In this document: positions 59,106 through 59,841 of the stretch, piece after piece | Numbering within the stretch: position 1 is the stretch's first letter | Layout: every line of letters starts with the position of its first letter | Virus record (IMG/VR): IMGVR_UViG_3300032294_002710 | Coordinates: 1 to 64,000 of that record | DNA: 64,000 bases | Reading direction: 5' to 3' (one strand) | DNA from: a virus | Translations under genes and position numbers: made by a program | The notes under the pieces: generated by a model | Told to the model about the DNA's origin: nothing | What the model saw: the letters and a program-made list of their open reading frames with translations, nothing else | Database searches by the model: none

Positions 59106-59127
59106 TGTGAGTAAAAATCTACTCACA
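59106..59127 (+). promoter_or_regulatory. Leader hairpin upstream of the release-factor gene
   Basis: TGTGAGT (59106-59112) pairs with ACTCACA (59121-59127), 8-base loop. It is not followed by a clean T run, so it may be a regulatory leader hairpin instead of a terminator. Confidence 0.45.
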
Positions 59128-59163: not shown

Positions 59164-59841
59164 ATGGAACAAATCATTATAGAAATAAGAGCCGCTGAAG
59201 GTGGACAAGATTCAAAACTACTTGTTGAAGATTTAAGAGATATCTATCTCAAAACTGCTAGAGTTAATAACTTTGATTATAAAGTTACTAATCGTGATGG
59301 ATTTACATCAATTTGACTGACTGGTCAGGGAGTTAAATCACTTTTTAAAAACGAAAGTGGTCCTCATCGTTGGTTAAGAATTCCACCAACTGAGAAGAGA
59401 GGTCGAACACAAACTTCAATTATCACTGTTGCACTAACCGATCCTAATGATAAATTAGATTTCAGGTTTAATCGAAATGAGGTTATAAAACAATATACTC
59501 GTAGTAGCGGAAAAGGTGGACAGAATGTTAATCGTAGATCTACCTGTGTTCAATTAACCCATGTACCAACTGGTATTCAAGTTAAATGTCAGGATCAAAG
59601 AGATCAAAGTAAAAATGAGGAATTAGCTTGGATTCGTATTGAAGAGAAACTTAGAATAATACATGATGATTCTCAAAGTAAGACTATTTATCAAAATCGT
59701 TTTGATCAAGTTGGTACTGGTTCAAGATCGGATAAAAAAAGATCATATAGGATCAAAGAGAATTTGGTAGTTGATCATGAGACTGGTAAAACCTGCACAT
59801 TTACTGACTTCTTAAAGGGAAGAATTGATTTATTGTCCTAA
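59164..59841 (+). CDS. Peptide chain release factor lacking domain 1, interrupted by an in-frame UGA
   Basis: From ATG 59164 one frame gives MEQIIIEIRAAEGGQDSKLLVEDL..., the start of release-factor domain 2. TGA occurs at codon 51 (59314-59316). The same frame then continues LTGQGVKSLFKNESGPHRW, RIPPTEKRGRTQTS, SSGKGGQNVNRRST and so on to TAA. GGQ is residues 118-120 and the P-x-T tripeptide (RF1-type, UAA/UAG reading) is 74-76. Total 225 residues including the UGA position, with no room for N-terminal domain 1. Against RF1/RF2 the UGA replaces one strand residue (Lys of IAKISG), so nothing else is missing. Neither a +1 nor a -1 shift bypasses it. Readthrough, editing or a pseudogene are the options. 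Sequence conservation on both sides favours function. Confidence 0.85.
59311..59338 (+). other. Hairpin containing the in-frame UGA
   Basis: AUUUGACU (59311-59318) can pair with AGUUAAAU (59331-59338) in eight pairs (one G-U), placing the UGA codon inside the 5' arm. GA-UC adds two inner pairs around CUGG. Alternatively CUGA (59317-59320) pairs with UCAG (59325-59328) right behind the UGA. The UGA is followed by C, the leakiest context. Confidence 0.45.

What the first reader, a model, noticed from the sequence alone, without database searches (positions are those of the whole stretch)
59311..59338. The in-frame UGA sits in the arm of a hairpin and in a leaky UGA-C context
Eight pairs (one G-U) enclose the UGA, and a second, smaller hairpin begins directly after it. 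The next base is C, the most readthrough-prone context. In-frame GGA codons at 59299 and 59329 flank the structure, reminiscent of the matched GGA take-off and landing codons of T4 gene 60, although a hop would delete conserved residues. A hairpin just at or after a UGA is the sort of element that favours readthrough, selenocysteine insertion or bypassing.
Basis: partly seen in the sequence, partly recalled or inferred. Interest (0 to 1): 0.7.

Follow-up and report, generated by a model that had tools for sequence, protein, structure and literature searches.

The report
Phage release factor gated by UGA
A large phage carries its own gene for the protein that ends translation, and that gene is interrupted by a stop codon that ribosomes must read through; most of its phage relatives have a similar obstacle, which suggests a control switch not previously described in bacterial or phage release-factor genes.

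Summary
The UGA at 59314-59316 is real and conserved; the hairpin around it is not. The gene (59164-59841) encodes a 225-aa RF1-like release factor without domain 1 (PPT and GGQ motifs). Of 72 distinct phage sequences, 66 carry one or two internal recoding stops; 0 of 80 bacterial RF1 genes from the same query do. The stops are read in frame (62 UGA, 4 UAG) or are RF2-like +1 shift sites, always on CUU (8 UGA, 10 UAG). UAA never occurs internally, though 63 of 72 genes end in UAA. On a tree, readthrough, frameshift and no-stop states change at least 10 times. The window's phage uses UGA as an ordinary stop, and no UCA suppressor tRNA was found on its contig. Sequence after the UGA is under purifying selection. 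Best explanation: a programmed stop that lets full-length factor be made mainly when UGA termination is weak, an in-frame counterpart of the prfB frameshift. Selenocysteine, bypassing, pseudogene and code reassignment are not supported for the window. Readthrough itself is inferred, not shown. A 2016 review says in-frame readthrough was unknown in bacterial release-factor genes; the nearest parallel is Mimivirus eRF1.

The parts
59164..59841 (+). Phage RF1-like release factor gene (225 codons including the internal UGA, then TAA); domain 1 absent
   Evidence: Pfam PCRF and RF-1 domains; NCBIfam prfA models best, below the equivalog cut-off; predicted fold pLDDT 90.8, TM 0.89 to ribosome-bound T. 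thermophilus RF1
59164..59316 (+). First open frame: 50 codons ending at the internal UGA
59314..59316 (+). Internal in-frame UGA (codon 51, 'site B'), context UCA AUU UGA CUG ACU GGU
   Evidence: 24 distinct sequences (window included) have an in-frame stop at this position, 3 of them UAG; lies in the strand of residues 47-53
59317..59841 (+). In-frame continuation encoding the rest of the codon-recognition domain and the GGQ domain; no ORF of 50 aa or more starts in it
   Evidence: dN/dS 0.15 against L002; no ATG/GTG/TTG ORF listed in this frame
59383..59391 (+). PPT (PxT, RF1-type stop-codon recognition motif)
59515..59523 (+). GGQ catalytic motif
   Evidence: invariant in the alignment
59311..59338 (+).

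Best explanation
The window holds a phage-encoded, domain-1-less RF1-like release factor whose expression is gated by a programmed in-frame UGA at codon 51. Most ribosomes should terminate there and release a useless 50-residue peptide. When UGA termination is weak (RF2 scarce or overloaded), a near-cognate tRNA, most likely tRNA-Trp, decodes the UGA and full-length factor is made. The new factor, being of RF1 type, would take over UAA termination and so free RF2: a negative feedback that works like the prfB frameshift but by readthrough, and indirectly. Shown here: gene identity, conservation of the stop, interchange of UGA with UAG and of readthrough with +1 frameshift sites in relatives, purifying selection downstream, standard code in this phage, no conserved RNA structure. 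Inferred: that readthrough occurs, which residue is inserted, the RF2-sensing role, and the codon specificity of the product.
For: Family: 66 of 72 distinct phage sequences have internal recoding stops, against 0 of 80 bacterial RF1 hits from the same query. Internal stops are UGA or UAG, never UAA (0 of 84), although terminal stops are UAA in 63 of 72. Frameshift members use CUU before the stop in 18 of 18, several as CGG AGG GGU CUU UGA, the RF2-type cassette. States are scattered on the tree: at least 10 changes of mode and 9 of stop type. L138 combines UGA readthrough with a CUU-UAG shift. UGA and UAG alternate at site B (L103, L116, L119). Purifying selection after the stop (ratios 0.08-0.40 in 13 pairs; 0.15 for window/L002). 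The product folds as RF1. UGA is a working terminal stop in this phage (13 of 134 ORFs, short extensions) and only this gene has a long frame after UGA. No UCA tRNA among 28 tRNAs of the contig, nor among those examined in W01-W04. No start codon giving 50 aa or more after the UGA. Synonymous change is reduced only locally, 0.74 of gene mean within 4 codons of the stop.
Against: No expression or protein data. An RF1-type (PPT) factor should not read UGA, so the feedback through UGA must be indirect; the window protein also has changed decoding residues (T. thermophilus Q185 to L, H197 to Q), so its specificity is uncertain. Two successive in-frame stops in many relatives would give very little product unless termination is strongly impaired. 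Some relatives carry suppressor tRNAs, so the trigger may differ between lineages. The contig is probably a fragment, so a suppressor tRNA elsewhere in the genome is possible.
Confidence: 0.68

Rival explanations
1. Suppressor-gated switch: late in infection a phage-encoded UCA (or CUA) suppressor tRNA reads the internal stops, so the release factor is made only once the phage has altered the decoding of stops.
For: G010 (UGA+UGA) carries one UCA tRNA, G016 (frameshift UGA) two, and CUA tRNAs are common in the set. Double stops need efficient suppression.
Against: No UCA tRNA among the tRNAs of the window contig or those examined in W01-W04, all of which have internal UGAs. In G010 and G016, UGA is still used as a terminal stop. 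CUU-stop +1 frameshift members need slow termination, not a suppressor.
Confidence: 0.17
2. Genetic-code reassignment (UGA = Trp or another residue) in phage or host; the UGA is an ordinary sense codon.
For: In several relatives the stop falls at a position that is aromatic in homologues (for example KG* where bacterial RF1 has GW, recalled from memory; at site A the window itself has Y).
Against: UGA terminates 13 of 134 ORFs in this phage and 8-17% of those sampled in W01-W04. Only one gene of this phage has an internal UGA with a long continuation. UAG substitutes for UGA at the same site, and CUU-UGA/UAG frameshift sites in the family require these codons to act as stops.
Confidence: 0.04
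3. Selenocysteine insertion at the UGA.
For: In-frame UGA inside a conserved domain.
Against: No conserved structure after the UGA; tRNA-Sec matches stay below cut-off and fall in the ordinary tRNA clusters; no relevant Rfam element; UGA is replaced by UAG in relatives, and the aligned residue is not catalytic.
Confidence: 0.02
4. Pseudogene or sequencing error.
For: An isolated nonsense codon would normally mean this.
Against: Same codon in independent assemblies and in phages only 50-77% identical; purifying selection downstream; intact catalytic motifs.
Confidence: 0.02
5. Hairpin-driven recoding or T4 gene 60-like bypassing between GGA codons.
For: The elements exist in the window sequence.
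Against: Hairpin not conserved; landing GGA replaced by AAA in L002; a hop would delete residues that align in the whole family; a z-score of -1.7 is unremarkable.
Confidence: 0.04

Closest known systems
Bacterial prfB (RF2) programmed +1 frameshift (CUU UGA C)
   Same: Class-I release-factor gene interrupted early by a stop whose slow decoding is needed for full-length product; some members of this phage family carry the same CUU-UGA cassette with an upstream GGAGG
   Different: The window gene continues in the same frame (no shift); the protein is RF1-type; many relatives use UAG, which was found in none of 8,164 prfB motifs (PMC12421855)
Mimivirus/Megavirus class-I release factor (R726/mg280), UGA-C readthrough plus frameshift
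   Same: Virus-encoded release factor with internal stops decoded by readthrough and frameshift; UGA-C context; L138 has both events in the same order (PMC3521657)
   Different: That protein is of eukaryotic/archaeal eRF1 type, not of bacterial RF1 type; it was tested experimentally; this family is bacterial-type and in phages
Bacterial prfA (RF1)
   Same: Fold, PxT and GGQ motifs, best sequence matches
   Different: No programmed recoding known in prfA (PMC12421855); window protein lacks domain 1 and has altered decoding residues
Release factor H (prfH)
   Same: Short class-I-like factor, weaker matches
   Different: Window protein is closer to RF1 by far and keeps PxT

Membership tests
RF1 (prfA) class-I release factor | PxT recognition motif and GGQ motif | tested here: met
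   PPT and GGQ present and conserved
RF1 (prfA) class-I release factor | NCBIfam prfA equivalog score | tested here: not met
   179.9 bits against a cut-off of 400; the protein is RF1-like, not a full prfA
RF1 (prfA) class-I release factor | Full domain set including domain 1 | tested here: not met
   Alignment begins at RF1 residue about 105; 225 aa in all
RF1 (prfA) class-I release factor | Release activity at UAA/UAG | not testable with these tools
   needs biochemistry
prfB-type programmed +1 frameshift autoregulation | Downstream coding sequence in the +1 frame after CUU-stop | tested here: not met
   window continues in frame 0; +1 after AUU meets a stop after one codon; met in 18 relatives
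prfB-type programmed +1 frameshift autoregulation | Product recognises the internal stop | tested here: inconclusive
   PPT predicts no UGA recognition; other decoding residues changed; UAG members could self-sense
Bacterial selenoprotein | Conserved SECIS hairpin after UGA and tRNA-Sec | tested here: not met
   (a host tRNA-Sec was not testable)
T4 gene 60-type bypass | Conserved matched take-off and landing codons | tested here: not met
   landing GGA absent in L002 and others
UGA-reassigned phage code | UGA absent as terminal stop; UCA tRNA | tested here: not met

The most novel reading that the evidence does not exclude
Huge phages evolved the arrangement once proposed for bacterial RF2 but never found there: a class-I release factor controlled by true in-frame stop readthrough (UGA or UAG, one or two in series), freely interchangeable in evolution with +1 frameshifting, and coupled to a factor with altered stop recognition (L/I/V/S at the third-base residue in the window's 11-member clade).
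Probability: 0.4. Interest if true: 0.9.

Novelty: new variant of a known kind. Interest (0 to 1): 0.78.

Why it matters
A 2016 review states that in-frame UGA readthrough was entertained for RF2 genes before they were sequenced but is found in none, and that a UAG counterpart in RF1 genes is also unknown (PMC5009743); a 2025 survey found no UAG in prfB motifs and no programmed recoding in prfA (PMC12421855). This phage family appears to supply these missing arrangements, with natural switches between readthrough and frameshift. It also suggests that huge phages monitor and adjust termination capacity during infection, and that standard gene calling would split these genes into a short peptide and a headless release factor.

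Tried and rejected
Hairpin as driver. Selenocysteine. Gene 60-type hop. Code reassignment for the window and W01-W04. Reinitiation at a downstream start (none). Long-range RNA signal: an apparent drop in synonymous divergence before the stop in L006/L109 and L122/L128 proved to be recombination, since the upstream flanks are also near identical; over 30 disjoint pairs only a mild local drop remains. Hirsh-like tRNA-Trp: U11-A24 is seen in some phage tRNA-Trp, but without a control this means little. L132 and L134 are doubtful sequences: L132 gave no reading path and is not counted, while L134 was left out of the tree but remains in the tallies.

Full report
What is there. The reported UGA lies at codon 51 of a 225-codon frame, 59164-59841. 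The product matches Pfam PCRF and RF-1 and, among NCBIfam models, prfA best, though below the equivalog cut-off. It has RF1's PxT motif (as PPT) and GGQ, but starts at about RF1 residue 105, so domain 1 is missing. AlphaFold2 gives mean pLDDT 90.8, and the model fits ribosome-bound T. thermophilus RF1 with TM 0.89. The UGA position lies in the strand of residues 47-53, so termination there leaves a fragment without PPT or GGQ.

The hairpin. In 24 sequences with a stop at the same codon the named helices pair in 57.8% of cells (shuffles 55.9%) and no consensus pair is predicted. It is best taken as incidental.

The stop is conserved, and the family is full of them. A 77%-identical relative keeps the UGA, as do three of the four closest GenBank huge-phage genomes (LR756502, LR745206, LR756501), two of them with a second UGA upstream; LR756504 has only an upstream one. 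A profile search of IMG/VR gave 80 loci. Reading each with minimal recoding events gives 72 distinct sequences: 29 with one in-frame UGA, 15 with two, 2 with UAG, 2 with UGA+UAG, 8 with a +1 shift at CUU-UGA, 9 at CUU-UAG, 1 with UGA readthrough followed by a CUU-UAG shift, 6 with none. Internal UAA: 0 of 84 events, against 63 of 72 terminal stops. Control: 80 bacterial RF1 loci from the same query have none. All but one of 28 contigs checked hold a single RF-1 domain match.

Evolution. On a tree rooted with bacterial RF1 the phage proteins form one group (SH-aLRT 99); mode (none, readthrough, frameshift) changes at least 10 times and the type of the last stop at least 9 times. In the 35-row clade that holds the window, 34 rows have a recoding stop at or within about two codons of site B. 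Exchange of UGA with UAG, and of in-frame stop with CUU-stop, argues that being a stop is what is kept, not the amino acid.

Not a pseudogene, not a different code. Downstream of the stop, non-synonymous to synonymous ratios are 0.08-0.40 in 13 pairs (0.15 for window/L002). In the window's phage 13 of 134 ORFs end in UGA, with short in-frame extensions; only the release factor has a long frame after UGA. ARAGORN finds 28 tRNAs on the contig and none with UCA; none was seen among the tRNAs examined in W01-W04 (45 of 45, 56 of 56, 55 of 62 and 33 of 43 against the counts). Other contigs do carry suppressor tRNAs: UCA in G010 and G016, CUA in several, UUA in G014, so a suppressor-gated version cannot be excluded in some lineages. 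For the higher-GC KG* group the code was not settled.

Local context. The base after in-frame stops is A 32, C 28, G 5, U 1; after terminal UGA in G000 and W01-W04 it is A 25, C 4, G 10, U 19. Part of this follows from the amino acids required next. Synonymous change is 0.74 of the gene mean within four codons of the stop and near normal elsewhere: a short context signal, not a long structure.

How it most likely works. The frameshift members are built like prfB, where slow decoding of the stop allows the shift; the in-frame members need the same condition but resolve it by near-cognate decoding. I therefore infer a gate that opens when UGA (or UAG) termination is weak. With an RF1-type product a UGA gate senses RF2, and feedback would run through relief at UAA; a UAG gate could be direct. 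The window's 11-member clade has lost the Gln that contacts the third stop base in RF1 (contact from PMC3974865; substitution), and the window protein also has His197 to Gln, so its specificity must be measured.

Known or new. Atkins et al. 2016 (PMC5009743) state that in-frame readthrough was considered for RF2 but occurs in none, that a UAG/RF1 counterpart is unknown, and that a giant amoeba virus has readthrough plus frameshift in its release factor. Jeudy et al. 2012 (PMC3521657) showed the latter for Mimivirus. Prince et al. 2025 (PMC12421855) found no UAG in prfB motifs and no programmed recoding in prfA. Al-Shayeb et al. 2020 (PMC7162821) mention RF1/RF2 in huge phages and only UAG reassignment. 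Searches of the held library found no account of this phage family, but most subscription journals and bioRxiv are not held.

Noticed in passing
window 59106-59127: Perfect 8-bp hairpin TGTGAGTA/TACTCACA in the 5' leader of the release-factor gene, also present in altered form in L002; function unknown.
   Followed up: partly
L138 (from 1501): Release factor needing UGA readthrough and then a CUU-UAG +1 shift, the same order of events as Mimivirus R726.
   Followed up: partly
G000 and W01-W04 ORF ends: ORFs ending in UGA meet the next in-frame stop sooner than those ending in UAA (median 4 against 7 codons, p = 0.003, gene overlap not controlled): possible back-up stops.
   Followed up: partly
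L274 (G010), L297 (G016), L298 (G014), L260-L265 (G007), L073-L077 (W03): Phage tRNAs with stop anticodons: UCA in G010 and G016, UUA in G014, several CUA, in phages that still use the same stops to end genes.
   Followed up: partly
L120/L121, positions 454-648: Second, partial copy of the release-factor N-terminal region upstream of the main gene; G009 also has a second RF-1 domain match with an internal TAA.
   Followed up: no
L006/L109 and L122/L128: Release-factor genes are mosaics: near-identical 5' halves and leaders with diverged 3' halves, a sign of recombination.
   Followed up: partly
L140, L146, L151, L154, L155, L159-L179 in part (KG* group): In-frame UGA at a position that bacterial RF1 fills with an aromatic residue, in higher-GC phages whose code was not settled here.
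   Followed up: no
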